Source: Castanea sativa
Lineage: Eukaryota > Streptophyta > Magnoliopsida > Fagales > Fagaceae
Assembly (NCBI RefSeq): GCF_040712315.1
Contig: NC_134013.1
Coordinates: forward strand, 40,536,501 to 40,600,500
DNA length: 64,000 nucleotides
Direction: 5' to 3'
Position 1 is the stretch's first letter. The number at the start of each line of letters is the position of its first letter. Shown here piece after piece: positions 7,989 to 64,000 of this stretch. The position numbers and the translations under genes were made by a program. The notes beneath the pieces were generated by a model that was not told the DNA's origin, did not search any database, and saw nothing but the letters and a program-made list of their open reading frames with translations.

Positions 7989-8727
7989 GAAAAACAATTT
8001 GGAGAGAGAAAGATATGATCCATGAAAAATTTTTAAAAAAAAAAATGCTCAAAAAACGTTATTATATTCAGCAGAAACTTGAATCGCATTTTTGGCTTGG
8101 AAAACGTTGAAATTTGATTTTATCTATTTCTGGAAAAGTTGTAGAGAATTAAAGTTCCTTTCATAAAACACTAATTTTGAATCAATTAGAATTTTGAACA
8201 GAAATTTAGAGCCAAAATACGAAACAGGTGCAGAAGATAACACAAATTCAGCATCATCTTCAATTTTCTTTCAAAATTTCAAATGAGGATCAACACCCAA
8301 TCTGATCAAGCTTATCTAATAGGCTTATTTCTTCCTTTAGCTTCAGAAGAAATTTTTTGAAAAACAAGTTGGATAGGAAAACAGATACATTCTTTGAAAA
8401 AATTCAAAAAACAGAAAAACGCTCAAAAAACGTTACTATTTTCAGCGGCAACTTAAATCAAATTTTTAGCCTGGAAATCGTTGAAATTTGGTTTTCTCTA
8501 TTTATTTCAAAGTTGTAGATAATTGAATTCCCTTTCAGAAAACACTAATTTTGAATCAATTGGAATTTTGAGCAGAAAGTTAGAACCAAAATAAGAAACA
8601 GGTGCAGAAAATAACACAAGTTCAGCATCATCTTCAACTTCCTTTCAAAATTCAAATGGGGATCAACACCAAATCCATTCCAGCTCATTTAAATAGGTTT
8701 ATCTCCTCCCTTAGCTTCAGAAGAAAG
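7989..8727. repeat. Imperfect tandem duplication, about 367 bp unit
   Basis: Copy one (about 7989-8355) and copy two (about 8358-8727) share long stretches such as CTCAAAAAACGTTA, ACTAATTTTGAATCAATT and GAAACAGGTGCAGAA in the same order. They differ by scattered substitutions and small indels. The pair lies just upstream of the TATA box at 8766, within the presumed U3 of an LTR-like element, where duplicated enhancer-like blocks are common. Confidence 0.8.
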
Positions 8728-8765
8728 CTAACAACTTAGCTTTAAAGCTAAGCCATTCCTTCCCC

Positions 8766-8773
8766 TATAAATA
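8766..8773 (+). promoter_or_regulatory. TATA box of LTR-like block
   Basis: TATAAATA in the context CCCCTATAAATAGAGAAAACC. It is followed by a pyrimidine-rich leader and no protein-coding ORF. The minus-strand block at 29.7-31.2 kb has an equivalent CTATAAATAGAG near 31171. Confidence 0.6.
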
Positions 8774-9034
8774 GAGAAAACCTCTTCCATTTTCTAGACC
8801 CCGAATTCCCTCTAGAGAGCTAGTGAGAAAGCAAAAAAGAAAAGCTGTTGTGCAACCAATTGTTCTTACTTGGGTTGTAGTTGAGTACTTCCTTGCTTTC
8901 TCCCTAGCTCTTTAAGTGATCACTTCCCCCTTTTAATTTATGTTCTATGTTGGTAAGTAGTTAATTACGTTTTTAACTTTCTATACATGCTAGAATAAAT
9001 GTTTAACAAATCATTATTTGTTTCTTTCATGATA

Positions 9035-9470
9035 TGTTTAACATGCCTATATGTCTCATTGATATTCCTTTTAAATGCTTAAATGAACACTTCTAGGTTA
9101 ATACACAAATTTTCTCTTGAATGCTTAGATGAACACTTCTAGGCTAAAACACAACTTTTTCTTGAATACTTAGATGAACATGTCTAGGTAGTTGTTTTAC
9201 TTTGTTAAATGCTTGAACAAACATGTCTAAGTATTTTGATTTTCTCTAGATGAACATGTCTAAGGGATTTTCCTTTACTTCTTTTCATAATTGCTTGGAT
9301 GATCAAATGTGCTTAAATGTTTTATTTAGTTTTATTTATTTTCTTCTCTTTGGAATTATGTTGATGACAAATAACATGACAACTTTGTTTATCTTTTTTT
9401 CACATGCTTAGATGAACATGTCTAGGCTAGGAATTCTTAGTTTACATTGATTTTTTGGATGAACATGCCA
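9035..9470. repeat. Degenerate short tandem repeats (GCTTAGATGAACA motif)
   Basis: About seven spaced copies of TGCTTAGATGAACA(T/C)(G/T)TCTAGG-like sequence occur at irregular intervals of about 55-80 bp. They lie in the leader of the LTR-like block and show no coding function. Confidence 0.6.
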
Positions 9471-10047
9471 TTACCTTCAAAACACATATTTGCTTACAAT
9501 TCTTGCAAATTAACATGTTTGTATGACATATTGTTTGTATTTGTTTGACATGACATGATGTTGGCCACCTTAACCTAGGAGACCGGTTTTACTGGGCGAG
9601 ATGGGTGCTTAATCCCTTCTCATCTCTTAAATTAGCCTCCGAACCAAGATCAAGGGTTCTAGATTATGATATTGTATATGCAATTTCACATTTCTTAGAA
9701 TGTAACTAGGAAATAAAGCAATGTAATTTATTTTTCTTAGATTGTATCTAGGACAAAAAGCATTGTAATTTTTTGTTACACAATTAATGTAAATTGTCAT
9801 AAATATTAATACAACATAAGCATTTTTTATTAATGGTTTTCTTATTTTTCCATTTAAATTAAATAAGTGGCGACTCCATGTAAAACCCTCGATCTAGGGG
9901 AGAGTACATTTTACAGTGAATTCGTACATTTTGAGCATCACGATCCCACCCATTCACATGGGTTAGGCCTAGTTTAAGAAAAAATTGGCGGGCCGGGGTT
10001 GCGGTCGCTCACAAACTCAAACGTTGATAATTTATAATTAATTAATA

Positions 10048-11066
10048 GGCAAAAATGCAAAACTGACCCTCTAACTTTCACCGTTTTTCATTTCAGTCCT
10101 CTAACTTTTATTTTTGTCAATTCAGTCCTCTAACTTTCAATTTTTTTTCAATTCAAAACTCCGTTACTGCTGCCTTCAGAACCACTAAAACGGTGTTGTT
10201 TTGCTTGTGGGTTTTTTTTTTAATTCGGAATTAAAATAAGAAAAATCTGAGGGGGGGAAAAAAACATTACTTGAAATCAAAAGAAAGAAATCATTGAGAA
10301 TTAAAAATCACCCAAAGATTTGGCGAGAGAGAGAGAGAGAATGAAGGAGTCGATCCGAAGCTTTTGTGGAAGCTTAAGTTCATTCTACAATCACGTCGAG
10401 TCCAGTTGCGATGCTCTAAGCAATCCATCGATCGCCATCCCATTCCTCTCGGTCTCTCCCTTTTCTTTCCTTTTTCTTCGTTTTTGTTTTCTCTACCCTT
10501 CTTTTTATATACTATACCACGTGGTAGATTCGGCTTCATCGACCTTCATACAATCCCTCAATCGCCGCATATCAATCAAACCGACGATCTCAACCTCGAT
10601 TCCATGACTTTCGGCACCGTCTCTTTCGTAGAGCTCTTAGGTCAATGCAATGAGGTCTACAAGAAGAACCAATCCAATCCACCAAACTCGAACTTCGCCT
10701 CAAGGACTTTGGATACAATCCCGGTACAATTTCACGCTCAATTTCACACTTCCACAAAAGCTTCAGATCGACTCCTCCATTCTCTCTCTCTTTCTCTCGA
10801 GCCAAATCGTTCCCCTTAATGTTTTATTTCTTTTTCTTTTTTTTTTCAGATTTTTCTTATTTTAATTCTGAATTTTTTATTAAAAAAAAAAACCACAAGC
10901 AAAACAGCGTCGTTTTAGTGGTTTTAACGGCAGTAGTAACTGAGCAGTAACGAAGCCTTGAATTGACAAAAAATTAAAAGTTAGAGGACTGAATTGACAA
11001 AAATGAAAGTTAGAGAACTGAAATGAAAAACGGTGAAAGTTAGAAGGTCAATTTTGTATTTTTGCC
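10048..11066 (+). mobile_element. Pack-MULE (Mutator-like element carrying a host gene fragment)
   Basis: The element is bounded by inverted repeats of roughly 150-190 bp: the left end starts GGCAAAAATGCAAAACTGACC and the right end closes with the complementary GGTCAATTTTGTATTTTTGCC. Both arms contain the CTCTAACTTT/AAAGTTAGAG motif several times. It is flanked by the perfect 9-bp direct repeat TAATTAATA (10039-10047 and 11067-11075), the target-duplication length of Mutator transposition. There is no transposase. The inside (about 10290-10860) is exon-like sequence, so this is a non-autonomous, gene-carrying MULE. Confidence 0.93.
10341..10723 (+). pseudogene. Host gene 5' fragment captured in Pack-MULE
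   Basis: The coding start MKESIRSFCGSLSSFYNH is followed by a probable GT-AG intron (about 10450-10527). Exon-like sequence then reads DSASSTFIQSLNRR and, in another frame, MTFGTVSFVELLGQCNEVYKK. A frameshift sits between CDALS and QSIDRHPIPL, so the copy cannot make the original protein. I do not recognise the parent gene with confidence; it looks like the first two exons of a small coiled-coil protein. Retention of the intron shows DNA-level capture. Confidence 0.6.
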
Positions 11067-33409: not shown

Positions 33410-34190
33410 TAAATCTCGACAAATAGCTCGATAGATGACTGCTATCGAGACTTAATATGAAGCTTGATAGATGGCTTGACACATCCTTGATCTATCGAGA
33501 ATTGTGATTTCAGAATTTCCAGGTTTGAAATTTGGCCCAGGCTTATGTATTTTTTTATGATTTCTTTTCTGATAACCCTAGACATGTATGAGGATTATTT
33601 TAAGAGCCATCGCATACAGATACAGAGACCAAGAAATTTATTTTCTTTGTGAGAAGCTACTGTATTTGTACGCTATAGAGTTTTGTAACCAAGTGCTTCT
33701 TGATATTCATTATTGATGAAGTGAAGAATTTTGTAGCCAACAACCTCATTCAAATTGCTGGAGCACGTACTGGGATCCGTGCAAAGGGTTAGTCATAGAT
33801 TGGAGATTTGTGCATTAAAGGAAAGAAGGCTACTACAAGATCAAGTTCAATTGGGTATTGAAGCGAAGGTTCAACTGTAGGTTGGTATTTAGGGATAGGC
33901 TAGGGTTGTGCTAAGATTCCTTATACTTGTAACCGCTTGATTGTTGATTAGTGGATTCTTGGAAGTGGTAATCTTAAAATCACCCAGTGGGGTTTTTATC
34001 TTGAGAGAGGTTTTCCCCATTTGTCAACAAATCACCATGGCAATTTACTTTACGAAGCAATTTAATTTCCGTTGCATTTAGTGTATTTGGTGATTTGTAG
34101 GTGCCTTCATGATTTGCATGCATTTGAACCTAATTAATCAACTTGAGTAAATTGAATTAATTAATCGGGGTTAAGCTATCTTAACCTAGC
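33410..34190 (+). mobile_element. Copia-type LTR remnant
   Basis: Sequence with TCGATAGATG/CTATCGAG motifs, a long leader and the string ATCACCCAGTGGGGTTTTTATC is followed immediately by a primer binding site for initiator methionine tRNA and a Copia gag fragment. The LTR probably starts before the MITE at 32921; its left end could not be set. No second LTR remains. Confidence 0.6.
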
Positions 34191-34430
34191 AAGTGGTATC
34201 AAAGCGGGCACACTCTAATTAGGTTTCAATCTTTACTTTATGATCCATTGACCCCTGTTGTTATGGATCGTGGGCAATCCCTAATTAATCAACTTGAGTA
34301 GATTGAATTAATTAATCGGGGTTAAGCTATCTTAACCTAGCAAGTGGTATCAGAGCGGACACACTTTGATTAAGTTTTAATCTTTACTGTGTGATCCATT
34401 GACCCCTGTTGTTATGGATCGTGGGTAATC
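34129..34430. repeat. 151-bp tandem duplication spanning the Copia primer binding site
   Basis: The segment starting CCTAATTAATCAACTTGAG at 34129 recurs at 34280 with few changes. Each copy carries a primer binding site (34194-34205 TGGTATCAAAGC and 34345-34356 TGGTATCAGAGC). Only the second matches the canonical site exactly. Confidence 0.9.
34345..34356 (+). promoter_or_regulatory. Primer binding site (initiator tRNA-Met type)
   Basis: TGGTATCAGAGC is the common plant Copia primer binding site, complementary to the 3' end of initiator methionine tRNA. It lies between the LTR remnant and the gag fragment. Confidence 0.85.
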
Positions 34431-34439
34431 CCTGATTAT

Positions 34440-35665: not shown

Positions 35666-35895
35666 CTGATGATGCACAAAAATCGTCAGTGAGTTGATCA
35701 TCCACACACGTGTCAATGGATGTACCTGAAGAACAAAAGAGAAGATTCAATCAAAGGGCACGGTGGGGTACCGGCCAAAAACCCTTCGAAGGTTAAGTCA
35801 GTGATAAAAGAATCTCCAAAAACTCAAGAGTACAAGAGCTAGGGAGAATTTATGTACCTTAAGAAAGGTAAGGTTTGCGGTTTATATAGTGGTAG

Positions 35896-36616
35896 TGTAA
35901 GTGCACAATTGCACCTGGACCCAAAGAAGATTATGGGCTCAGGCCCAATGAGCCTTAAACAATAAAATTTGTAGAGTGTGGGCTTGAAATCTAGGTTAGA
36001 GGTACTGAGAACTTGACAACAGTCTGAGAGTTACAAACACTTGTGAATAACAATTGTTAATTGCAAATAGGCCTCCTCGGACGTGAGCCGAGGACCAACT
36101 CTGTATTATTTCTCTTTCTTTCTTACAAGTTACAATCCTTAACTTCTTTTCTTTTTCTTTAGAGAGAGAGAAAGAGTGAGCGAGAGAAAGATCCCCCTCT
36201 CTCTTTTGCCTTCCTCCCCCTTAAATACCCATTTTTCTGATACTTTTTGGGACACTGACTAGAAGTTTACGCCCCTCGTTCGGGGGTCACTTCCCCATTA
36301 ATGCGGCCGGGAGGTAGATGCGAGTCTTTAATAATGCGGAGGTGGCGACCTTTGCTCTTGATATTTTCCTTAACACTAGGGCATCAAGAAGGTTCGGGTT
36401 TCCTTTAACCATTGGTCTTTCCGGGAGTTGTGCTTTGACCTTTATAATGAAGCTTTGAGCTCTCTTGGGCCTGTCCGAGGAGAATCTTATCCTCGGCTGC
36501 ATCCTCAGACCCTCGGCGTATGGGCCAATTTGTAGAGTTTAATTCTGGAGCAAGTCGGTCCTCCATGCTACAGTCCAAAGGCCCATGTGCCCACATTGGT
36601 CCTTTTACTCCCCACA
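35896..36616 (-). repeat. 3' LTR of element B (721 bp)
   Basis: On the plus strand it runs from TGTAAGTGCACAATTGCACC to TTTTACTCCCCACA. It matches the partner LTR at 46114 except for a cluster of differences between about 36268 and 36432. There all eight CAG/CTG triplets of the partner are altered, mostly by loss of the middle base. Confidence 0.95.
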
Positions 36617-36632
36617 ATAGCCCCTCAAAACT
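36617..36632 (-). promoter_or_regulatory. Polypurine-like tract of element B
   Basis: The minus strand reads GTTTTGAGGGGCTAT directly before the LTR start TGTGGGG. The same string precedes the LTR of A; C has a one-base variant. Confidence 0.75.
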
Positions 36633-37123
36633 CTATTTTTCATCATTCGAGGAGAAAAATAGGGTTTTGATCCAACGAAAACTTTCCTCACACGTTCTGT
36701 AAATAACTATACGTGTGAAGACCGTTTCGCGTTCCAGAGGATGCCACCTGGCGGTTTTATTTTTGAAAAATGCGTGCAATTATTACCGTAAGTTATACCT
36801 AGTCCCCCACGTTCAACGGTGAGATAAGCATCCAACGGTCCATGTTACTCCATGAAGATTTGGGCGGGACAAGTACAATTTCGAGGCCGCTTCCCGCATG
36901 TCGTGACGCTTTGGGAACCTGCGCCTTCATTTATTTCTCCAGAGGCTAATCCCATCAAAATATCAGCAATCACCTTTTGTCTGCAGAAATCTGTGGAAAT
37001 TTGCACAACTTGAAATTTGTAAGTTCTCATTTCTTTTCTCTTAACCCTTTCTCCTCGGACCCTGTCCTCGGCTCCTCTTATTACCATTCTCCCTCTTAGA
37101 ATTTAGCCTTTCTTTCCTTTCTG

Positions 37124-39597
37124 ATGGGAAAGTTCAAGTGTCTAGTTGATACCGCCGCTGGGATGGAAGGCTTTAGAGCCAAGTATCATATTCCCAGCGA
37201 CGTATGTTTAGAATACTGCCCGGCGGAAGCCGTGGCCGGTTCTAGGAAGGCTGGAGAGGTTATCATCCCAATGGTAGCCTTCGTAGAAGGTGAGATGACC
37301 CTCCGAATGAAGCCTGTGACCAGGGAGTACCTCCGCAACCACCGGTTGTGTCCCGATCAGTGCGCCCCAAATGTTTTTAGAGTTTTGGGTAGCGTCGACG
37401 CTCTAAACGAGCAAATAGGTCTAAACCTCACCTGGCATGATGTCGTCTTTATGTACGAATGCCACAAACTCACTAGAGTAGGCTATTACATCAAATCCCG
37501 CTCCAGCGTAGTTAGGTTGATCTCCTGTTTGCCCAAGTCCAATAAAGGCATGAAGGATGACTACCTCATCGTCTCTGGCAACTGGCACGACGGCCCCCAC
37601 TGCCCAGTTGAGTAGGGAGTTCCAGGTGCGACACCTTAGGATTAAACTTCCCCTCCCATAACTCCCTAAATCATCTAGGAATGTGCATTTGCATTTACTT
37701 GAGCGTCTACCTTTAATTTATTATATGTTTTGCGCCTCTGACCATGTTTGTTTATTTGGATGTTTTTCTTTGCAGATAAACAAAACGTGCGTCCCCGCCT
37801 AAGCCACTGCAACGTTGTAGATTTGAATCGAGTGCTCCGCTCCGAAGTGTTCGTCAGCGCAGACTTACAACTTATGGCGGCTCATTTGATTCTGGGGTAC
37901 GATCCCATATCCTCGGACTTCCAGGCAATAGAGAACGCCATCATTGCCGGTGACCGGCGGCGTAGGAAGATTCACGTAGCCAGACTACATTTCCTGGCCG
38001 ACGACGACCTCCCTGACAGCCCTAACACCATACTGTACTTACAACCGATTGTTGCGGTCCCTCTAGCTACACACTCCCAGGCAACTGTTGTCCCAGAGGA
38101 GCAAGTGTCTTCGTTGAACACGTTGGACGAGGAGATCGATAGGTTCCAACTCGAGGACGTTCCACGACCTCGCGGAAGCCCGTTCGTTGTTCTTTCCGAC
38201 GAGGAAGAAGAAGCCGCCGAGGCCTCTGGGATCGCGGGTCTAGTGATGACGCGTCCGGACGCAGAGTTCTATTGAAGAAGAGATGGACGGGCTAAAGGAC
38301 CTATATGCCGATAGAGGCGCTGAGTGGCAAAGAAGGGAGCAAGAGGGTCCCGAGCTCCCCGCCTTGCTCACCCCTCCCGACCAAGCCAAAACCTCCACGC
38401 GCGCGATTCTAAGAAGAAAAGAAAAGTGGATGCCGAGGGGCCCGTGGCGAAAGCCAAGAAGGCCCGAAACGGCGGCCACCACCCCGGCCGACGGTAGAAG
38501 GCCGGACAAGGGCAAGGGGCGCGCCCGCTCGGTTGAAAGTGGGGAGATCGGGGATGTGGCGAGGTGCCGCGGCACCGGCCAGCTTGGTCTCGACTTGACG
38601 GCGGGCCGGCGCCCCAATTCCCTGCCACTCCGACGTGGGCGGCCCGACAAGGCCACGCCCACCACTTGGCCGAGGTGTTGGAGCGTCCTCTTGCTGCCCG
38701 AGGATATGGAATCCTTGGAGAAGATGGGCCGGCCGCTGTTCCTCGTTAAAAATGGGTTTAGCTCGGTAAGTTCTATCTTTAAACTTTATATTCTATATTT
38801 ATTTGTAAACACTTGTTGCATTTAACCTCCTAACATTTTTGCGGTCCATCCGAAGGTTTCGCGGCGAGAAGTTCGTGAAGGATTCTCGGAAGCGCGGCGG
38901 GATGGAGCAAGAGCTAAGACAAGGCGAGAAGGTCCCTAGACCGAGCCATAGCGAAAACGGGAGGCTCGTGTCACGGTGGCCGACTTGAAAAGAGAAAGGG
39001 ATGGTGACAAGTCCGGCTTGAAGACGATGGAGAGCCAAGTGGAGGGGCGGCGTAAGCTTCTCCGCCAAAGGATGACGAGCTTGCCCAAGTCCAACGAGGC
39101 ACGCTCGACTTGGAAAAGGAGCTTACGCGGGCGAAGGAGGAAGCTCGCGCCCACCGGCACACACGGAGGCCACGAAGAAGGCCGGTTATCGGGGAGGGGT
39201 GACTAGAACGCAAGAAGAGGCGCGGAGGCTTTTGCGGCCTTATGCGAAATCATCGACAAGTCTGAGTGGAGGCCATGAATGCGGCGGGGGTTCCTCGAGC
39301 TTAGGTGAGGAAGCCGAGAACATCTGGCTTCCCCTAGACATACGAAATTGTATGACCCTGCGTGCTGCCTCTCCGCCCTTCCTCTGTGGTGCAAGATCAT
39401 GTTCTGCTCCTACGAGAACTCCGAAGGTTCCCATAAAGAGAAGGACGAGTGCGGTGGTGCGGGAGCGGATCCAAAGCGTAGAGCCCCCATTCCTTCAACG
39501 GACAAAGGGAAACAAGCCTTGTCTACCTTTGAAGGTGGAATTGAAGAGTACTGAGGCTGGCAGTAGCTCCCTTCAAGACCCCCCTTCCCTAGTTTAA
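37124..39597 (+). pseudogene. Antisense ORF (aORF) of Tat-like element B, intron-containing, broken
   Basis: The ORF runs opposite to gag-pol, from the 3' LTR inwards. Exon 1 (37124-37625) encodes MGKFKCLVDTAAGMEGFRAK, GEVIIPMVAFVEGEMTLRM, VFRVLGSVDALNEQIGLNLT and SVVRLISCLPKSNKG. A GT-AG intron (37626-37775, 150 bp, phase 1) leads to exon 2, which starts DKQNVRPRLSHCNVVDLNRV. A TAG at 37613-37615 replaces the TGG of copy C. From about 38270 the frame is broken repeatedly; a second intron (about 38766-38843) lacks the A of its acceptor AG. The C-terminal part is charged and coil-like. The N-terminal region resembles the 'putative gypsy type transposon' domain (Transposase_28) by recall. Function unknown; such ORFs are known in Tat elements. 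Confidence 0.85.
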
Positions 39598-40019
39598 GGC
39601 CTAGTATAGGACTTTTCTGTACTCCCCTTCTTTGTATATAATTAATGAAGAAAATTTTTATTCAACTTTCGTTCACGTTGTCTTTGTTTTACCTTATTCT
39701 TTTTGTGCTTGCCATGAAAGTTTTCAGTAACAAGTAGTTAAAAGGGAAAACAGAATAAATAAGTATAACTTCACCATGCAAACAACTATGACTTCAAAAC
39801 AGCCACATAACTTAATTTAGATATCAAATAATGTCACAGTTAGACAACTAACATGACGGTTAAACCTTTGTAATCTGACATATTGCTTTCAGTAGGATGT
39901 AAGGTCTGAAGACCATTCCTTACAAAAATTTGTTTAACACTTAATGAATGGTGAGATAATGACTTCCATAAAACGGGTGATAAGAATAAGAATAGTGACA
40001 AGATATTAAGAACAGTGAC

Positions 40020-40740
40020 AAGGTTTGTAGTCCGAGGACTAGACTTAACCAAGTTTCTGTTTGATTTTTAAGAGTAGTATCTTCAAATGTTAATTGCCCC
40101 CAAAGTAGGAGGTCCGAGGACCCGGCATAACTAAGGTTCTGTTTAACAAATGACAAGACATCAATTTCCACAAGGTTTGTGGTCCGAGGACTACACTTAA
40201 CCAAGTTTTTGTTTGATTCTTAAGAGTAGTAACTTCAAATGTTAATTTCCCCAAAGTAGGAGGTCCGAGGACCCGGCATAACTAAGGTTCTATTTAACAA
40301 ATGACAAGACATCAATTTCCATAAGGTTTGTGGTCCGAGGACTACACTTAACCAAGTTTCTGTTTGATTCTTATGAGTAGTAACTTCAAATGTTAATTTC
40401 CCCAAAGTAGGAGGTCCGAGGACCCGGCATAACTAAGGTTCTGTTTAACAAATGACAAGACATCAATTTCCATAAGGTTTGTGGTCCGAGGACTACACTT
40501 AACCAAGTTTCTGTTTGATTCTTAAGAGTAGTAACTTCAAATGTTAATTTTCCCAAAGTAGGAGGTCTGAGGACCCGGCATAACTAAGGTTCTGTTTAAC
40601 AAATGACAAGACATCAATTTTCACAAGGTTTGTGGTCCGAGGACTACACTTAACCAAGTTTCTGTTTGATTCTTAAGAACAGTAACTTCAGATGCCAGAG
40701 ATACTTATAACTTTGAAATGTTAACCAACAAAAGCACGTT
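40020..40740 (-). repeat. 151-bp tandem array in the 3' untranslated region of element B
   Basis: Five copies begin at 40020, 40172, 40323, 40474 and 40625 (AAGGTTTGTGGTCCGAGGAC), period 151-152 bp. Each unit contains two diverged halves, each with a GGTCCGAGGAC core, so the array is a dimer-type higher-order repeat. The second half (GGAGGTCCGAGGACCCGGCA) corresponds to the 81-bp monomer of element A read on the element strand. Confidence 0.95.
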
Positions 40741-40743
40741 TTA

Positions 40744-43700
40744 TTAATAATAATACCTTCTAAGGTTATTTACATTCCACGGGCGTGGTACAATTCTTTC
40801 ATCTAGGTCTGCTAATCGATACGACCCTATACCTGCTACGGAAACAATGCGATAGGGGTCTTCCCAGTTGGGTCCTAGCTTACCCCAAGCTGGGTTCTTA
40901 GAAGTGCCTACAACTTTTCTTAGTACAAGATCACTAGGTGCAAGTGGCCTTAGCTTCACGTGGGCATCATATCCCCGTTTTAGCTTCTGTTGGTAATAAG
41001 CCATCTGGACCATAGCAGCCTCGCGCCGTTCCTCAATTAAATCAAGGCCTTTCTCCAAGAGTCCATCGTTATTCTCCGGGCTAAAAGAACTCGTCTTGAG
41101 AGTGGGAAAACCAGATTCTAAAGGTATCACTGCCTCGGCTCCATAAGTCATAGAGAATGGCGTTTCTCCCTTGGACCTGCGCAGTGTGGTCCGATACATC
41201 CACAAAACATGTGGGAGCTCTTCTACCCATCTGCCTTTCGCATCATCCAACCTTTTCTTGAGCCCACTGACTATGACCTTGTTAACGGCCTCGGCTTGCC
41301 CATTTCCCTGAGGATAAGCTGGGGTGGAGTATCTATTTATGATGCCCATATCACCTGATACTTTCTAAAAGCCTTACTGTCGAACTGAACGCCATTATCC
41401 GAGACGAGTGTGTGTGGTATACCGAATCTAGTAACGATGTTTTTCCAGACAAACTTCTTGGAGTCAACGTCTCTGATATTTGCTAAGGGTTCGGCTTCAA
41501 CCCATTTAGTGAAATAGTTTGTTCCCATAAGAAGCCATCTTTTGTTTCCTACAGCCCTCGGAAATGGCCCCACTATGTCCAATCCCCATTGTGCAAAAGG
41601 CCAAGGACTGGAGAGAGGGTTAAGTACCCCTCCAGGTTGATGAATATTTAGGGCGAACCTCTGGCATTGATCACATTTTCTGGCGTAGTCCTGAGCCTCT
41701 CTCTGCATATTGGGCCACCAATAACCCTGAGTCAGGGCCCTATGGGCTAAGGACCTTCCCCCAGTGTGGCTTCCATAAATCCCTTCATGCAGTTCTTCCA
41801 GAAGTGCTTCCGTTGATTCAGGGTGCACACACAACAAGTACGGTCCTGAGAAGGATCGTTTGTACAGTTTCTCATCCTCGGACAACCAAAAACGTGGCGC
41901 CTTTCGACGTATCTTATCTGCTTCAGACTTGTCTTCAGGAAGGATGTCATTCTTAAGAAAAGATATGACCAGGTCAATCCAACTAGGTCCAGGCCTTATT
42001 AGATGGACGCGGGCCGCCTTGGCGGGGGTAAGAGTTGGCTCTAGCAAATCCTCCACAAGGATAATCCTGGGCAAACCCTGAGCCGAGGACGTTGCTAACG
42101 TAGCCAAAGAATCGGCATGGGTGTTCCCACTTCTAGAGATGTGAGCTAAGACAAAGGAGTCAAATTCTACTTGCTGACGCTTGACCTGGGCCAAGTATTC
42201 CTGCATTCTTGGGTCCCTAGCCTCCATGGTCCCCGTGACCTAGCCGACCACTAACTGAGAGTCCGAGAACGCGTGGACTTCCTTTCCACCCATCTTATGT
42301 ACCATGTTCATGCCCACCAAGACTGCTTTATACTCGGCTTCATTATTAGTAGCCGAGAATGACAGCCTTAGAGATTTTTTGAAGATAATTCCCTCAGGGG
42401 ATATCAGAACAAGTCCGACACCGAGACCTACTCGATTAGTGCCCCATCACATTACATTTTCCAAGTCAAAGGCCTACGTGTGATCACACCAAGCTGATTT
42501 TCCATCCACGTGTGCTTCTTCTAGAGTTTCTTCTAGCAATGGTTCGATAAACTGCGCACCAAGTCGGCGAGGACACTGGCCCTTCACCGAGGTGCGAGGC
42601 TTATATTTAACGTCAAAAGCTCCTAAAATGGTTCCCACTTTGCCACCTACCGGAGTAGTCGGCGGCTGCGTAACACTGCCTTGAGAGGCAATTGGGTCAG
42701 AACCACTACAGTGTGAGACTGAAAATAATGAGGAAGCTTGCGCGTGGCGTGAACTATGGCCAGAAGCGCTTTCTCCAAGAGCAGATAGCGCACCTCGGCC
42801 TCATTCAAAGACTTACTAACATAGTAGACCGGTCTTTGCACCCCGCTTTCATTCCTTATAAGGACCAGACTAACCGTGTGGACGGCCACTGTCAGATAAG
42901 CAAACAAGACCTCGTCCGCCTCGGGGCGAGACAAGATGGGTGGCCGAGAAAGATATTTCTTAAGCTGCTGGAAAGCTAATACGCAGTCCTTGGTCCATTG
43001 AAACCCTTTCCACTAATTCAACAATTGGAAGAAAGGACGGCATCGGTCAGCTGACCGAGAGATAAGTCTATTCAATGCAGCAATCATTCCGGTCAATTTC
43101 TGGATCTCTTTTGGGTTCCGAGGCGGCTGCAAATCCTGAATAGCCTTGACCTGTGCTGGGTTCACCTCTATGCCTCTGTGAGTAATCATGTATCCCAAAA
43201 AATTTCCGGACCCCACGCCAAAAGAGCACTTTGAGGCGTTAAGGCGCAGCTTGTACTTTCTTAGCACCTGGAAGGTGTCGGCTAGGTCTTTGACGTGTGA
43301 ATGTATTATTTTGCTCTTCACCACCATATCATCTACATACACCTCAATGGTTTTCCCTAATTGCTGTTCGAACATCCTGGTCATCATTCTTTGGTAAGTA
43401 GCCCCATCATTTTTCAACCTAAATGGCATGACCTTATAGTAGTAGTTCCCCGTTGGAGTAATGAAAGCAGTCTTCTCTTGATCCTCCAACGCCAAGGGAA
43501 TCTAATGGTAACCTTGGAAGGCATCCAAAAAACTCATCCGAGGATGTCCAACAGTGGCATCCACCAGTTGATCAATACGCGGCATTGGGAACGAATCCTT
43601 GGGGCAGGCCTTGTTCAAATCTGTGAAGTCCACACATACTCTCCACGTTCCATTCTTCTTTTTTACCACAACCGTATGCGCCAACCATTCGGGGTAGAAA

Positions 43701-44600
43701 ATTTCTTTAATAGCCCCGGCCCTTTTGAGTTTGAGCACCTCTTTCTTCACAGCCTCGGAATGTTCTTTGGAAGAACGACGAGGTGGCTGCCTTCTCGGGA
43801 CAATAGCTGGGTTGACGTTTAAACGATGACAAATGAAGCTCGGATCCACACCTGGAGCCTCATAAGGGTCCCACGCAAAAACATCGATATTGTCCTTCAG
43901 AAATTTCAACAACTCCACTTCTCCTGGTGCGGCAAGCGTATGCCGACTTGGAAGAACCTCTCTGGATCATCGGCTATCAAAAACTTCTCTAACTCCTCAC
44001 AGTGAGCCTCCTCTCCTATCACCACTACAGGTGCATCAGGAACTGTTAATTGCTATGATTCTTGGATGGGCAAAGGCGATGACTCGGCTTACTGTCGATG
44101 AAGCAACGCTTGCGGCCGATATGCATTGCCGAGCCACCTTGGGTGTGCCAGGGATTTCCTCGACATATTCCCCGAGAGGAACTTAACCTTAACATGTAAG
44201 GTAGAGGAAACGGCCCCAGAGCGTGCAGCCATGGCACTGGCGAGGATGGGCGTATATGGGGAGTAGGCGTCGACCACAATGAAATCCACCTCCTTCGTTT
44301 TTCGAGCCGGATTGAACGGGCAAACGGATACGCCGCCCGGCATGACGGCTCTTCCTTCAAAACTTATAAGCGGTGAATCATAAGGAGTGAGATCCTCCGG
44401 CTTCAACCTTAGCCTTAAACAAATCGAGGGTACATGATGTACGCATTTGCCACGATCTATCATCACCCTCCTTACATCATAATTCCCTATCCTTAGGGTG
44501 ACTACAAGAGCATCGTCATGGGGTTGGATAGTCCCAACCTTATCATCCTCGAAAAATCCCAAGACGGGAAAATTCAGCTTCACCCTCTTTGCTCGCAACC
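40744..44600 (-). pseudogene. Ty3/gypsy pol pseudogene: protease, RT, RNase H, second RNase H, integrase
   Basis: In order on the minus strand: protease-like segment (44089-44598; RRVMIDRGKCVHHV holds D-x-G in place of the usual DSG/DTG); reverse transcriptase (43013-43918) with SFLDAFQGYH and the catalytic YVDDMVVKS; RNase H (42647-42934, PVYYVSKSLNEAEVRY); a second archaeal-type RNase H (about 42240-42480, LSFSATNNEAEYKAVLVGM and AFSDSQLVVG); integrase (40744-42227) with the HHCC finger, WGLDIVGPFP, LVSDNGVQFDS and NGQAEAVNK, and a C-terminal LRPLAPSDLVLRKV motif. In-frame stops occur at 43502 and 43010 and before 42236, and frameshifts near 44150, 42650 and 41345. The product would copy element RNA and insert the DNA, but this copy cannot. 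Confidence 0.93.
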
Positions 44601-44692
44601 TGACTCCTCGGCCTGAGGATGTGAAACTGCCATCACCCTGGTGGGACCCGAGCCTGTCCTGCCAGGTGCAGCAAAAATAACATTAATTATTC

Positions 44693-46066
44693 CTAACGCC
44701 GGCCGAGATGAATTATTCCTCTGGTTGTTTGAGCCGGATTTGGCCTGCCTTCGCTAGGTTGGCACAAGTCTTCGCTTCGGTTTTCCTTCAACGACAAAGT
44801 TTGCTCCAAGTGGTTCCAAAGGGTACGACAGTTCTCGGTAGTGTGACCCACATCCTGATGGTACTGACAAAAAAGGTTCTGATTCCTCTTTGCAGGGTCT
44901 CCTGCCATCTTACTAGGCCATCTGAAGAAGGGCTCCTTACGAACTTTCTTCAGCAATTGATGTACTGGTTCTCGGAACACAGTGTTCACGGCCTGAGGCG
45001 CTACCGAGCCGGACTGCCCAACGTAATCTCGCCTCGGCTTGTTGTTGTGGTACCTGTTCAACCTGAAATCCCTTCTCTCCTGCGGGATAACCTTCTCCTT
45101 ACCCTTTCCTTGCTGTTGGTCTTCCTCCACCCTCTTGTACTCGTCAATACGGTCCATGAGGCGACGTACGCTACGGACGGGTTTTTTGGTCAAAGACTTT
45201 CTCAAGTCGTGATTAGTAGGAAGACCTACTTTAAAGGTATTGAGCGCCACCTCATCAAAATCACCATCTATTTCATTAAACATCTCCTAGTAACGGTCGG
45301 AGTATGCTTTCAACGTCTCTCCTTCCCTCATGGTCATGGATAACAGTGAATCCAATGGCCGAGGTACTCTGCTACACGTAATGAACCGCGAAGCGAATAC
45401 TCTAGTGAGCTCCCCAAAAGAACCTATAGACCCCGATTTAAGGCCGTTGAACCACCTCATAGCAACAGGTCCCAAGCTATAGGGGAAAACTTTACACATC
45501 AGAGCCTCGTTATGAGAGTGCACCGCCATCCTCTGGTTAAAGTGACTCACGTGCTCCACCGGATCAGTCCGGCCATTGTAGATGGTGAAGGTAGGGCACA
45601 GGTGAATCTCACGGGAAGCTTCCCTTTCTCAATCCTCCGCGAAAATGGAGATTTGGAGAGTTGGTGCAACGCCCAGGCTCATAGCATCGTTCCCCTGGCC
45701 CCCAGAAGGAAGCTTCTTCGTGCGAGGCGGTTGGTCGTCCTCCTCACAAGAGGACATTGCGCTGGGGGGTGAGTATGACCTTGAGCTGTAACCACCTCCC
45801 CGGGCTTCCTCTGAAGAAGGATCAGATGAGGACGGTGAAGGCTTACGTCTGGCACGGCGTAGTTTTCTTTTCAGACGACCAATCTCCCTCTACATGGCCT
45901 TAGCACCCTCCTCGTGGGTAGTGCTACCCCCGCCCTGAGTATGGCTAGCCCCGGGGTATTCTGTATGGACACTTCCCTCACGATCCCTTCGACGCTCAAG
46001 ACGCTCGAAAAGATCCTCCGGTTGTGATCCCTGTGATTCTACATGGTCAGAACCTAGGCCTGCCAT
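44693..46066 (-). pseudogene. Ty3/gypsy gag pseudogene
   Basis: One frame of 458 codons runs from ATG at 46066 (MAGLGSDHVESQGSQPEDLF) to the stop at 44693. It is interrupted by TAG at 45890-45892, TGA at 45629-45631 and TAG at 45287-45289. The capsid part reads TIYNGRTDPVEHVSHFNQRM, KVFPYSLGPVAMRWFNGL and LLSMTMREGETLKAYSDRY. A C-x2-H-x4-H-x4-C zinc knuckle variant (CQYHQDVGHTTENC) is near the C-terminus. Gag would form the particle and bind RNA. A Ser/Arg-rich, acidic linker follows the N-terminus. Confidence 0.92.
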
Positions 46067-46087
46067 GGTATCCTAACCTTTTCTAGA

Positions 46088-46111
46088 CTAGACTTCCCAC
46101 AGACGGTGCCA
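46088..46111 (-). promoter_or_regulatory. Primer binding site of element B
   Basis: After the 5' LTR end (CTTACA) and two bases, the minus strand reads TTGGCACCGTCTGTGGGAAG. This is a typical Ty3 primer site; I could not assign the tRNA with certainty. Confidence 0.75.
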
Positions 46112-46113
46112 AT

Positions 46114-46838
46114 TGTAAGTGCACAATTGCACCTGGACCCAAAGAAGATTATGGGCTCAGGCCCAATGAGCCTTAAACAATAAAATTTGTAGAGTGTGGG
46201 CTCGAAATCTAGGTTAGAGGTACTGAGAACTTGACAACAGTCTGAGAGTTACAAACACTTATGAATAACAATTGTTAATTGCAAATAGGCCTCCTCGGAC
46301 GTGAGCCGAGGACCAACTCTGTATTATTTCTCTTTCTTTCTTACAAGTTACAATCCTTAACTTCTTTTCTTTTTCTTTAGAGAGAGAGAAAGAGTGAGCG
46401 AGAGAAAGATCCCCCTCTCTCTTTTGCCTTCCTCCCCCTTAAATACCCATTTTTCTGATACTTTTTGGGACACTGACTAGAAGTTTCTGCCCTACTGTTC
46501 AGGGGTCACTTCCCCATTAATGCGGCCAGGGAGGTAGATGCAGAGTCTTTAATGCGGAGGTGGCAGCCTTTGCTCTTGATATTTTCCTTAACACTAGGGC
46601 ATCAAGAAGGTTCAGGGTTTCCCCTCTTTAACCATTGGTCTTTCCAGAGTTGTGCTTTGACCTTTATAATGAAGCTTTGAGCTCTCTTGGGCCTGTCCGA
46701 GGAGAATCTTATCCTCGGCTGCATCCTCAGACCCTCGGCGTATGGGCCAATTTGTAGAGTTTAATTCTGGAGCAGGTCGGTCCTCCATGCTACAGTCTAA
46801 AGGCCCATGTGCCCACATTGGTCCTTTTACTCCCCACA
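46114..46838 (-). repeat. 5' LTR of element B (725 bp)
   Basis: Plus-strand limits TGTAAGTGCAC and CTCCCCACA. It retains CAG/CTG triplets throughout and is a good reference for the altered patch in the partner LTR. A GA-rich block at 46380-46410 and a TTAAATACCC TATA-like sequence near 46439 lie within it. Confidence 0.95.
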
Positions 46839-47159
46839 GGTAGATAGCTAACCCGAATCCCTTGGCACAGGGGAATTTCCTTGTAAAGAGAAGGGTCCCA
46901 AGATACTTGAGATCACCTTTCCATATATAAGAGATCTGATTGTGTGGTAGGGCATTTGGTCGTGATGTGCAAGTAATTTCTATGTAAGGATGTGTGAGTG
47001 AGCCCCATGTAAGCCCCATGAAAACCCTAGGGGATGGGTCGTCAGGATCGAGTATTGCCTAATCTGTTGGACCATGGGCTGGTCATCCCTTTCGGGGTTG
47101 GTCGTCCCTTTTGGGGTTGATCTTCCCTTTTGAGGATTGGTAAAAAATTGTCCTCATCA

Positions 47160-61167: not shown

Positions 61168-61909
61168 TATAAGTGCACAATTGCACCTAGACCCAAAGAA
61201 AATTATGGGCTCAGGCCCAATGAGCCTTAAACAATAAAATTTGTAGAGCGTGGGCTTAAAATCTAGATTAAAGGTACTGAGAACTTGATAACAGGCTTTG
61301 GTATGCAAACACTTGTAAATAATGAATGATAATTGCCGATGGACCTCCTTGGACGTGAGCCGAGAAACACTGTTATATTATTTCTCTTTCTTTCTTCTAG
61401 ATTACAATTCTTAAAATCCCACTGCCTTAGTTACAGACTGACCCCCTTTAAATACTTCCTTTCCTGACACTTTATCCACGTGTTGCTTAAACCCCCTCCC
61501 CCCTAGATATTTCTTCCCTTAGTGCCTTTGAATAGTGACCAAAAGTTTCAGCTCTACTGTTCAGGGGTCACTTCCCCATTAATGCGGCCAAGGAGGTAGG
61601 TGCAGAGCCTTTAATGTGGAGGTGGCAGCCTTAGCTCATGATACTTTTCTAACATCGGTGTATCTAGAAGGTTCAGGGCTTTCCCCTCTTAACCAACAGT
61701 CTTTCCAGAGTTCTGCCTTGACCTTCGTACTGAATCTACGAGTTTTCTTGGGTCTGTCCGAGGAGAAACTCACTCTCGGATGTGTCCTCGGACTCTCGGC
61801 GTATGGGCCGATCCGCAGTACTAACAAATTCTTTGCCCAAGAACAGATCGGCCCTTCTTGCTAGAGCCCAAGGGCCCAAATGCCCGCTTGGGTCCTTTTA
61901 CTCCCCACA
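61168..61909 (-). repeat. 3' LTR of element C (742 bp)
   Basis: Plus-strand limits TATAAGTGCAC (a TG-to-TA change in the terminal dinucleotide) and TACTCCCCACA. It matches the LTRs of B with scattered substitutions and keeps the CAG/CTG triplets that the left LTR of B lacks. Confidence 0.92.
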
Positions 61910-62416
61910 ATAGCCCTTCAAAACTCTATTTTTCAGCATCCGAGGAGAAAAATAGGGTTTTGATCCAACGAGAACTTACCTCATACGTTTTGTAAATAAA
62001 CTACGCGTGTGGAGATCGTTTCGCATTCCAGAGGATGCCACTTGGCGGTTTTATTTTAAAAAACGCGCGCATTTATTACCGTAAGTTACACCTTATCCCC
62101 CACGTTCAACGGTGAGATGAGCATCCAACGGCCCTTGTTACCCTTTGAAAATTTGGGCGGGACGAATACAATTTCGAGGCCGTTTTCCCGCACGTCGTGA
62201 CGCTTTGGGAACTTGCGCCTTCATTTATTTCTTCAGAGGCTAATCCTATCAAAACATCAGTAATCACATTTTTTCTGTAGAATTCCGTGGAAACTCGCAC
62301 AACTTCAAACTTGTAAGTTCTTATTCTTTTTCCTTAACCTATTCTCCTCGGATCCTGTCCTCGGCTCCCATTTTAACCGTTCTTCCTCTTAAAACTTAAT
62401 CTTTCGTTCCTTTCCA

Positions 62417-64000
62417 ATGGGAAAATTTAAGTGTCTAGTTGACACCGCCGCTGGGATGAAAGGTTTCAGAGCTAAGTATCACATTCCCAGCGACGTAGGT
62501 TTAAGATACTGCCCGGTGGAAGCCGTGGCTGGGTCTAGGAGAACGGGAGAGGTTATCATTCCCATGATTGCCTTCATAGAAGGTGGGATGACCCTCCCTA
62601 TGAAAAGCGTGACCAGGGAATACCTTCGCAACCACCGGTTGTGCCCCGACCAGTGTGCTCCCAACGTCTTTAGAGTCCTAGGAAGCGTCGACGCTCTAAA
62701 CGAGCAGATGGGTCTGAACCTTACCTGGCACGACGTCGTTTTTATGTACGAGTGCCATAAACTTACCAATGTAGGTTATTACATCAAATCCCGCTCTAGC
62801 GTAGTTAGGTTAATCTCCTGTCTGCCCAAGTCCAATAAAGGCATGAAGGACGACTACCTCATCGCCTCAGGCAATTGGCACGACGGCCCCCACTGCCCAG
62901 TTGAGTGGGGAGATCCAAGTGCGACTTAGGATCTAACTTCCCACCCCATAAATCCATATAAGCATCTTAGAATGTCATTTGCATTTATAAACTGTTTGAC
63001 TTTGATTTACCACATGTCTTAAAAGTCTGATCATGTTCGTCTGTCCTTGGTGTCTTTCTTTGCAGATAAACAACTCGTGCGCCCCCGCTTGAGTCACTGC
63101 AACGTTGCAGATTTGAACCGAGTGCTTCGCTCAGAGGTGTTCGTGAGCGCGGACTTACAACTTAGGGCGGCTCATTTGATATTAGGGTACGACCCTATCT
63201 CCTCGGACTTCCAGGAGATCGAGAACGCCATCATTGCCGGTGACCGGCGGCGTAGGAGGATTCACGTAGCCAGACCACATTTCCTAGCCGACCATGACCT
63301 TCCTGACGACCCCCACACTATATTGTACACATAGACCATTGCGGCAATCCCCCTCGCCACGCACCCTCAGGCAACAGTTGTCCCAGAGGAGCAAGTGTCT
63401 TCGTCGAACACGTTGGACGAGGAGATAGATAAGTTTCAACTCGAGGACGCCCAATGACCTCGTGGAAACCCGTTTGTTGTTCTTTTCGACGAGGAAGAGG
63501 AGCTAGCCGAGACCTCTGGGATCACGGGCCTAGCGATAGCACGTCCAGACGACAGCTCCATTGAGGAAGACATGGACGAGCTCAAGGGCCTTATGACGGC
63601 GAAAGGCGCGAGAGTGGCCAAAAAGGGTACGAGGGGGTCCCAAGTTCCCCCAGCCTTGCCACCACCCCCTCCTCCAGCCGACCCCAAACTTCCAGCTGAG
63701 GAGCCTAAAAAGAAAAGAAAAGGGGAGGCCGAGGAGACTGGTGGCGAAAAACAAAAGAAGCCACGACAACTACCACAACCAGCTCAGCAGCAGAAGCTGG
63801 ACAAGGGGAAAGGTCGGGCTCGCTCAGTCGAGAGTGGGGAGATCAGAGACATGGCCGAACTGCGCCGAGCACCGGCTACCTGGTCTCCTGACTTAAGACT
63901 GGACGGCGCACCAATCCCCTGCCACTCCAGTATTAGGGCAATCCAACAAGGCCACGCCCACCACTTGGCCGAGGCGTTGGAGCGTCCTCTTCTTCAGCCC
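62417..64000 (+). pseudogene. Antisense ORF of element C, two nonsense codons, 3' end outside window
   Basis: Exon 1 (62417-62928) starts MGKFKCLVDTAAGMKGFRAK and keeps TGG where copy B has TAG. The intron (62929-63065, 137 bp) has GT...AG borders at the same point as in A and B. Exon 2 starts DKQLVRPRLSHCNVADLNRV and continues in one frame to the window end, through a Pro- and Lys-rich segment (PPPPPPADPKLPAEEPKKKR) and RARSVESGEI. Only two nonsense codons interrupt it: TAG near 63332 and TGA at 63455-63457 (CGA in copy B). It is therefore the best-preserved copy for inferring the family protein. Function unknown. Confidence 0.88.

What the first reader, a model, noticed from the sequence alone, without database searches (positions are those of the whole stretch)
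38739..39261. 523 bp without a single CAG or CTG inside element B's antisense ORF
Reading 38739-39261 by eye I find no CAG or CTG on the plus strand (so none on either strand), although it is mostly GC-rich coding-type sequence. The preceding stretch 38341-38580 also has none. Where copy C can be compared (63640-63980), its CAG/CTG triplets correspond to CG-type or shortened strings in B, with frame loss. The acceptor of the second intron reads TTTTTGCGG where TTTTTGCAGG is expected. Selective loss at CHG-symmetric sites suggests base-calling or polishing errors at CHG-methylated cytosines in long reads rather than mutation. If so, the many frameshifts here are artefacts.
Basis: partly seen in the sequence, partly recalled or inferred. 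Interest (0 to 1): 0.75.

Follow-up and report, generated by a model that had tools for sequence, protein, structure and literature searches.

The report
Sequencing errors mimic a decayed transposon
A stretch of a plant jumping gene that lacks every CAG and CTG is most likely a sequencing artefact, in which methylated CAG/CTG sites were misread as CG, so part of the apparent damage to this gene is probably not real.

Summary
Confirmed: 38739-39261 has no CAG/CTG (CWG). Dinucleotide shuffles give 12.4 on average, and none of 2000 gave zero. CWG is the most depleted of 32 triplet classes there.

The window holds its own control. Element B is one insertion with matching 5-bp target duplications. 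In a 161-bp patch of LTR1, 8 of 8 CWG sites of LTR2 are gone. LTR2 and copy C each have 8 CWG and 2 CpG there; LTR1 has 0 CWG and 10 CpG. Outside the patch 13 of 14 CWG are kept, with 4 differences in about 560 bp.

In 38240-38735 copy C has 21 CWG; 1 is kept in B, and 14 of the 20 lost show a CpG, against 3 of 21 lost sites in flanking sequence. CWG becoming CpG is the opposite of deamination. It resembles published nanopore errors at methylated CCWGG.

Verdict: residual long-read base-calling errors at CHG-methylated cytosines, in stretches that polishing or gap filling did not correct. Methylation, platform and pipeline are inferred; no reads were available. Not a biological feature.

The parts
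35896..46838 (-). Element B: complete Ty3/gypsy-type LTR retrotransposon (gag-pol read on the minus strand), Retand-like layout
   Evidence: LTR pair 96.7% identical, TSD GGTAG on both sides, RVT_1 and Integrase_H2C2 in minus-strand ORFs
35896..36616 (-). LTR1 (3' LTR in element orientation)
46114..46838 (-). LTR2 (5' LTR in element orientation), the internal control; 8 CWG opposite the patch
35891..35895 (.). Target-site duplication GGTAG, left copy (right copy 46839-46843)
36265..36425 (.). Affected patch 1, inside LTR1: 0 CWG and 10 CpG where LTR2 and copy C have 8 CWG and 2 CpG; 28 of the 32 LTR-LTR difference columns
38240..39261 (.). Affected patch 2 (contains the finding): 6 CWG against 28 expected, 92 CpG (86.4 expected from composition); breaks up the plus-strand ORF and lacks the AG acceptor of its second intron
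38739..39261 (.). The 523-bp stretch of the finding: 0 CWG, 44 CpG
44237..44575 (.). Possible patch 3 in the protease-region ORF: 2 CWG (10.3 expected), 21 CpG (20.2 expected); weak evidence
37124..38275 (+). Readable part of the plus-strand (antisense to gag-pol) gene, ORFs 37124-37615 and 37748-38275; a further ORF 38283-38825 lies in patch 2
38766..38844 (+). Intron suggested by related proteins: GTAAGT donor; acceptor end reads GCGG without AG
61170..64000 (+). Copy C, left part of a related element (about 80% identical to B), used as outgroup; CWG-rich opposite both patches

Best explanation
The CAG/CTG-free stretch is an assembly artefact. The element is a silenced plant retrotransposon, so its symmetric CWG sites (a CHG context) very probably carry 5-methylcytosine on both strands. 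A nanopore base-caller whose 5mC training came mainly from CpG reads the methylated C of C-W-G as the C of a CG and calls CG, CGG, CCG or a shuffled string, changing or dropping the W. Most of these errors were later corrected with short or more accurate reads. They persist where CWG sites were densest, or where raw long reads filled a gap, because correcting reads could not be placed there. Shown: triplet-specific loss, CWG-to-CpG replacement, confinement to patches, an intact paired copy. Inferred: methylation, platform, training bias, polishing failure.
For: (1) 0 CWG against 12.4 expected, 0 of 2000 shuffles, most depleted of 32 triplet classes. (2) LTR1 against LTR2 of one insertion: in the patch 8 of 8 CWG lost, outside 13 of 14 kept (Fisher 2.8e-5); CWG/CpG counts 8/2 in LTR2, 8/2 in copy C, 0/10 in LTR1, and all 8 lost sites carry a CpG within one column. 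(3) Copy C against B in 38240-38735: 1 of 21 CWG kept against 27 of 48 in flanking sequence (p 3.8e-5); 14 of 20 lost sites show a CpG against 3 of 21 (p 4e-4). (4) LTR1 carries 4 differences in about 560 bp outside the patch and 28 difference columns in 161 bp inside, so the insertion looks young and decay would hardly be so local. (5) The affected stretches sit opposite the CWG-densest parts of copy C: 4.9 and 4.5 per 100 bp against 1.7-2.6 in the other four stretches compared. (6) Five other repeat pairs of the window, one of them inside B, show no CWG-to-CpG exchange; their CpG counts are 10/9, 5/5, 4/4, 2/1, 3/3. (7) Published nanopore precedents: methylated CCAGG/CCTGG made up about 70% of consensus errors with then-current ONT callers in Klebsiella (PMC6591954, passages); GCAGC and GCTGG were error motifs in Listeria (PMC10687267, passages).
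Against: No reads, quality values or methylation data were available, and the own-genome search did not complete. Patch limits were drawn after looking at the alignments, so the in/out tests are partly circular, and overlapping triplets are not independent. Six CWG survive inside 38240-39261. Six of 20 lost sites show no CpG. Other triplets are also less conserved in that patch (165 of 448, 37%) than in the other five stretches compared (47-63%). CpG in patches 1 and 2 is near the composition expectation (10 against 10.4, 92 against 86.4); it is high only relative to the copies and to most of the rest of B. Of 28 LTR patch difference columns 18 lie within 2 nt of a CWG, and 2 of 12 difference blocks touch none. 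In LTR2 the densest 160-bp window is not unique to the patch: windows from 46409 on also hold 8. In some control repeats CWG is also less conserved than other triplets (3 of 8 against 465 of 515; 1 of 4 against 125 of 153), so ordinary mutation removes CWG too, though without CpG gain. In the Listeria paper the number of 5mC sites did not differ between bad and good genomes, so that precedent is for the motif, not for 5mC.
Confidence: 0.88

Rival explanations
1. Real decay of a methylated transposon: CHG methylation raises C-to-T deamination, so CAG/CTG sites erode with time.
For: Plant transposons lose methylated cytosines by deamination (established knowledge). CWG is low in an AT-rich stretch, 8700-9900, together with CpG (3 CWG, 7 CpG). 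CWG is less conserved than other triplets in some control repeats without CpG gain.
Against: In the LTR patch 8 CWG become 8 extra CpG, the reverse of deamination, and CpG in the finding is 44 against 35.7 expected. TpG and CpA are below expectation there (21 against 32.9, 22 against 30.5), though this is partly the CWG loss itself counted again. The unaffected LTR parts differ by 4 columns in about 560, so there was little time.
Confidence: 0.03
2. Gene conversion or recombination with a divergent relative replaced the stretches, and that relative happens to lack CWG.
For: Conversion gives local tracts of divergence with sharp ends, as seen in LTR1.
Against: At least two separate tracts, one in non-coding LTR and one in coding sequence, share the same triplet-specific signature. 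The outgroup copy C has the same counts as LTR2 (8 CWG, 2 CpG), not those of LTR1. Of 12 difference blocks in the LTR tract 10 touch CWG zones that make up 32% of it; a donor would be expected to differ elsewhere too.
Confidence: 0.04
3. Composition or codon usage: the protein simply avoids Gln/Leu codons CAG and CTG, so the gap is chance plus selection.
For: Longer CWG-free gaps occur elsewhere in the window, in 2-kb bins of GC 0.26-0.34.
Against: The related chestnut protein P0122 has 10 Gln in the last 84 residues, which lie beyond the proposed intron (counted by eye). Copy C has 21 CWG opposite 38240-38735. The same loss occurs in the non-coding LTR.
Confidence: 0.02
4. A different technical cause, for example unpolished raw long reads of another chemistry with random or homopolymer errors, unconnected with methylation.
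For: Two of 12 LTR difference blocks are away from CWG; the alignment shows short length changes there. The patches look like unpolished tracts.
Against: Random or homopolymer errors would not single out CWG among 32 triplet classes or turn all 8 LTR sites into CpG.
Confidence: 0.05

Closest known systems
Nanopore consensus errors at Dcm sites CCAGG/CCTGG (Wick et al. 2019, PMC6591954; passages read)
   Same: 5mC in a C-W-G context untrained in the base-caller gives systematic consensus errors that only partly yield to polishing.
   Different: Bacterial CCWGG motif. Here any CAG/CTG in a plant transposon, and the passages read do not say whether the errors become CpG.
Modification-mediated nanopore errors at GCAGC and GCTGG in Listeria (PMC10687267; passages read)
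   Same: Errors centred on a CAG/CTG core, left after polishing, improved by whole-genome amplification.
   Different: Bacterial lineage-specific modification of unclear mechanism, and 5mC counts did not differ between good and bad genomes; the passages describe mismatches, whereas here there are also length changes.
Loss of nanopore accuracy in plants from plant methylation (PMC9749173; PMC7501810; passages read)
   Same: Plant methylation named as a likely cause of poorer base calls; polishing with Illumina reads advised (PMC7501810).
   Different: No CAG/CTG signature is described in the passages seen; 'CHG', 'CAG' and 'CTG' have 0 occurrences in the main text of PMC9749173.
Retand-lineage LTR retrotransposons (PMC11963269; passages read)
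   Same: Antisense ORF and tandem repeats between pol and the 3' LTR; LTR and internal sizes fall in the published ranges.
   Different: The lineage was not tested by RT phylogeny, and the TRP28 domain was not detected in the two exon ORFs scanned.

Membership tests
Modification-induced nanopore consensus error (CHG 5mC) | Errors concentrate at one modifiable motif, not at other triplets | tested here: met
   Most depleted of 32 triplet classes; 0 of 8 CWG kept against 118 of 157 other triplets in the LTR patch. In 38240-38735 other triplets also suffer (165 of 448 kept)
Modification-induced nanopore consensus error (CHG 5mC) | An independent copy of the same sequence carries the motif intact | tested here: met
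   LTR2 and copy C: 8 CWG, 2 CpG each, against 0 and 10 in LTR1; TSD shows one insertion. For 38740-39261 no copy in the window exists
Modification-induced nanopore consensus error (CHG 5mC) | The site is methylated in the sampled DNA | not testable with these tools
   No bisulfite or signal data; expected from transposon silencing in plants (established knowledge)
Modification-induced nanopore consensus error (CHG 5mC) | Accurate or amplified-DNA reads do not show the error | not testable with these tools
   No reads held; own-genome search unanswered
Deamination of methylated CHG | CpG loss accompanies the CWG loss | tested here: not met
   LTR patch CpG 2 to 10; CpG 44 against 35.7 expected in the finding
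Retand-lineage Ty3/gypsy element | gag-pol with RT and integrase between LTRs | tested here: met
   RVT_1 1.1e-16, Integrase_H2C2 2.2e-12; rve 1.1e-5 but below its cut-off; LTRs and TSD
[quoted passage not shown]
   Antisense ORF present; no PF04195 hit in the two exon ORFs scanned apart
Retand-lineage Ty3/gypsy element | Place in the reverse-transcriptase phylogeny | not tested
   No tree was built

The most novel reading that the evidence does not exclude
A real mutational or editing process in this plant rewrites CAG/CTG as CpG in local tracts of a retrotransposon, creating CpG sites instead of destroying them. A tamer form: the residual errors are a readable record of CHG methylation, so that CWG-to-CpG exchange between paired LTRs lets one infer CHG-methylated stretches from an assembly alone.
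Probability: 0.03. Interest if true: 0.8.

Novelty: not a real feature. Interest (0 to 1): 0.2.

Why it matters
If right, transposon ages, pseudogene calls, splice sites and LTR dating in affected plant assemblies are biased: the LTR pair here shows 32 difference columns, 28 of them in one error patch. The paired-LTR count of CWG lost against CpG gained is a simple, reference-free test that can be run on any plant assembly.

Tried and rejected
Plant DNA relatives: scans of viral contigs (31 stretches matched a pattern, none confirmed) and genome contigs (29 stretches, none confirmed) gave nothing. Only proteins came back, from unnamed metagenome contigs and from Castanea, Quercus and Lithocarpus records. 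The host is therefore Fagaceae-like; the species was not identified.

Possible patch 3 by protein comparison: with the 120 listed of 5016 relatives, conserved columns matched in 64 of 100 inside 44237-44575 and only 16 of 54 outside it. The patch is therefore not worse than its surroundings at protein level. Conserved Gln columns matched in 1 of 7, but three of the seven lie outside the patch. I keep it only as possible.

Low CWG with high CpG alone is not enough. 61921-62220 in copy C is such a stretch (2 CWG, 24 CpG), but in the stretch of B that covers its counterpart (36426-37000) CpG triplets are mostly shared with C (11 of 12 CCG/CGG), so it looks natural. 10261-10760 (1 CWG, 25 CpG) had no copy to compare.

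A first version of the alignment script timed out and was replaced. Rfam on the whole window gave 0 matches at gathering scores. One literature call failed on a sign. Passages of PMC8514461 held nothing on CAG/CTG errors.

No paper describing CAG/CTG-to-CG replacement in plant assemblies was seen in searches (listings and abstract starts, plus passages of the papers cited). This is not proof of absence, because the library lacks most subscription journals.

The explanations are not strictly exclusive (deamination may act beside the artefact), so they need not sum to one.

Full report
WHAT WAS CLAIMED AND WHETHER IT IS THERE. The stretch 38739-39261 holds no CAG and no CTG. Its dinucleotide content predicts 12.4 and its base composition 16.7; none of 2000 dinucleotide-preserving shuffles reached zero, the lowest being 4. 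The neighbouring 38341-38580 also has none (6.1 expected, 0 of 2000). Among the 32 strand-symmetric triplet classes CAG/CTG is the most depleted in 38739-39261, 38341-38580 and 38240-39261, but not in 37124-38239. CpG observed over expected is 1.23 in the finding, 1.06 over 38240-39261, 0.94 in 37124-38239 and 0.58 in 39262-40000. Four longer CWG-free gaps exist in the window, and in 1000-bp windows the strongest CAG depletion is elsewhere, at 8726 in AT-rich sequence, so depletion alone is not remarkable. The combination of CWG loss and high CpG is: the two best non-overlapping 500-bp windows of that scan are 38761-39260 (0 CWG, 43 CpG) and 38121-38620 (4, 54).

WHAT IT LIES IN. Element B, 35896-46838, is a complete LTR retrotransposon. 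Its LTRs are 35896-36616 and 46114-46838 (96.7% identical), with target duplication GGTAG on both outer sides. Minus-strand ORFs carry reverse transcriptase (RVT_1, 1.1e-16) and integrase zinc-binding (Integrase_H2C2, 2.2e-12) domains. The plus-strand gene of the finding runs antisense, between pol and the 3' LTR, next to a 151-bp tandem repeat. This layout matches the published description of Retand elements (PMC11963269, passages). Named relatives of copy C's antisense ORF and of B's protease-region ORF are in chestnut, oak and Lithocarpus records, so the host is Fagaceae-like.

THE INTERNAL CONTROL. The two LTRs of one insertion were identical when it inserted (established knowledge). Of 32 difference columns, 28 lie in 36265-36425 and 4 in the other 560 or so bases. 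LTR2 has 22 CWG sites. In the patch 0 of 8 are kept in LTR1, outside 13 of 14 (Fisher 2.8e-5; the patch limits were drawn from the same alignment, so this p is partly circular). The exchange is the more telling count: the LTR2 counterpart has 8 CWG and 2 CpG, copy C has 8 and 2, LTR1 has 0 and 10. All 8 lost sites carry a CpG; in that alignment six keep their length, one is a base shorter and one a base longer.

THE SAME IN THE FINDING'S PATCH. Against copy C, 38240-38735 keeps 1 of 21 CWG, while other triplets keep 165 of 448 (p 0.0017). Flanking sequence keeps 27 of 48 CWG (p 3.8e-5). C has 21 CWG and 26 CpG, B has 5 and 48. Of the 20 lost sites 14 show a CpG in B, against 3 of 21 lost sites in the flanking stretches (p 4e-4). 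No copy in the window covers 38740-39261. The related chestnut protein P0122 has 10 Gln in its last 84 residues, beyond the proposed intron (counted by eye). It matches copy C at 66% over 137 columns and B at only 28% over 272; P0123 matches B in three frames, two of them overlapping before the intron and the third beyond it. The proposed intron ends in GCGG at 38841-38844, without an AG acceptor.

MECHANISM. CWG turning into CpG is not deamination, which destroys CpG. TpG and CpA are also below expectation in the finding (21 against 32.9 and 22 against 30.5), but that is partly the CWG loss counted again. A methylated C followed by W and G that is decoded as a methylated CpG gives the pattern seen. 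Published precedents are the Dcm motif CCAGG/CCTGG, about 70% of consensus errors with default models in Klebsiella, often only 70-80% of them corrected by methylation-aware polishing (PMC6591954, passages), and the GCAGC/GCTGG motifs in Listeria (PMC10687267, passages), where, however, 5mC counts did not separate bad from good genomes. Papers on plant nanopore data name methylation as a cause of lower accuracy (PMC9749173; PMC7501810; passages).

WHY IN PATCHES. The stretches of copy C opposite the two patches are the CWG-densest of the six compared (4.9 and 4.5 per 100 bp against 1.7 to 2.6); in LTR2 the densest window is not unique to the patch. Dense errors would keep short reads from aligning, so polishing would fail there. 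Gap filling with raw long reads is the other route: the tanoak genome, also Fagaceae, had gaps filled with nanopore reads called with the fast model and was then polished with Pilon (PMC11075539, passages). Whether this window comes from such an assembly is unknown. Both routes are inference.

WHAT SPEAKS AGAINST. Six CWG survive in 38240-39261. Six of 20 lost sites show no CpG. The patch is also more diverged from C in general. CpG in patches 1 and 2 is near the plain composition expectation. The possible third patch 44237-44575 is supported by CWG count (2 against 10.3, CpG 21 against 20.2) but not by protein comparison. Gag-pol is interrupted at 42228-43012, where CWG is not depleted, so not every break here is explained. 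In two control repeats CWG is also less conserved than other triplets (3 of 8 against 465 of 515; 1 of 4 against 125 of 153), but CpG does not rise (10/9 and 3/3).

VERDICT. Observation confirmed, interpretation supported, not a biological feature. The decisive data, accurate reads and methylation calls, were not available; the own-genome search was sent four times and never answered.

Noticed in passing
44237-44575: GC-rich stretch of the protease-region ORF with 2 CWG (10.3 expected) and 21 CpG (20.2 expected); may be a third error patch, but protein comparison does not single it out.
   Followed up: partly
45141-45440: Another stretch of element B low in CWG with high CpG (2 CWG, 18 CpG in the 300-bp scan); no copy to compare.
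   Followed up: no
10261-10760: 1 CWG and 25 CpG; a CpG-rich stretch overlapping a 151-aa ORF; no second copy to compare.
   Followed up: partly
8700-9900: AT-rich stretch with 3 CWG (20 expected) and also low CpG (7, 29 expected), so probably a different cause from the finding, perhaps old deamination.
   Followed up: no
39947-40694 and 34129-34438: Tandem copies with the same 151-bp period inside element B and just outside it; BLAST of the element against the window listed no match of 80 bp or more between the two.
   Followed up: partly
61921-62220: Copy C stretch with 2 CWG and 24 CpG; in the matching part of B CpG triplets are mostly shared, so it looks natural, and shows that the ratio alone is not proof of error.
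   Followed up: yes
42228-43012: No minus-strand ORF of 100 aa or more between the RT and integrase ORFs, although CWG is not depleted there; natural decay or other residual errors.
   Followed up: no
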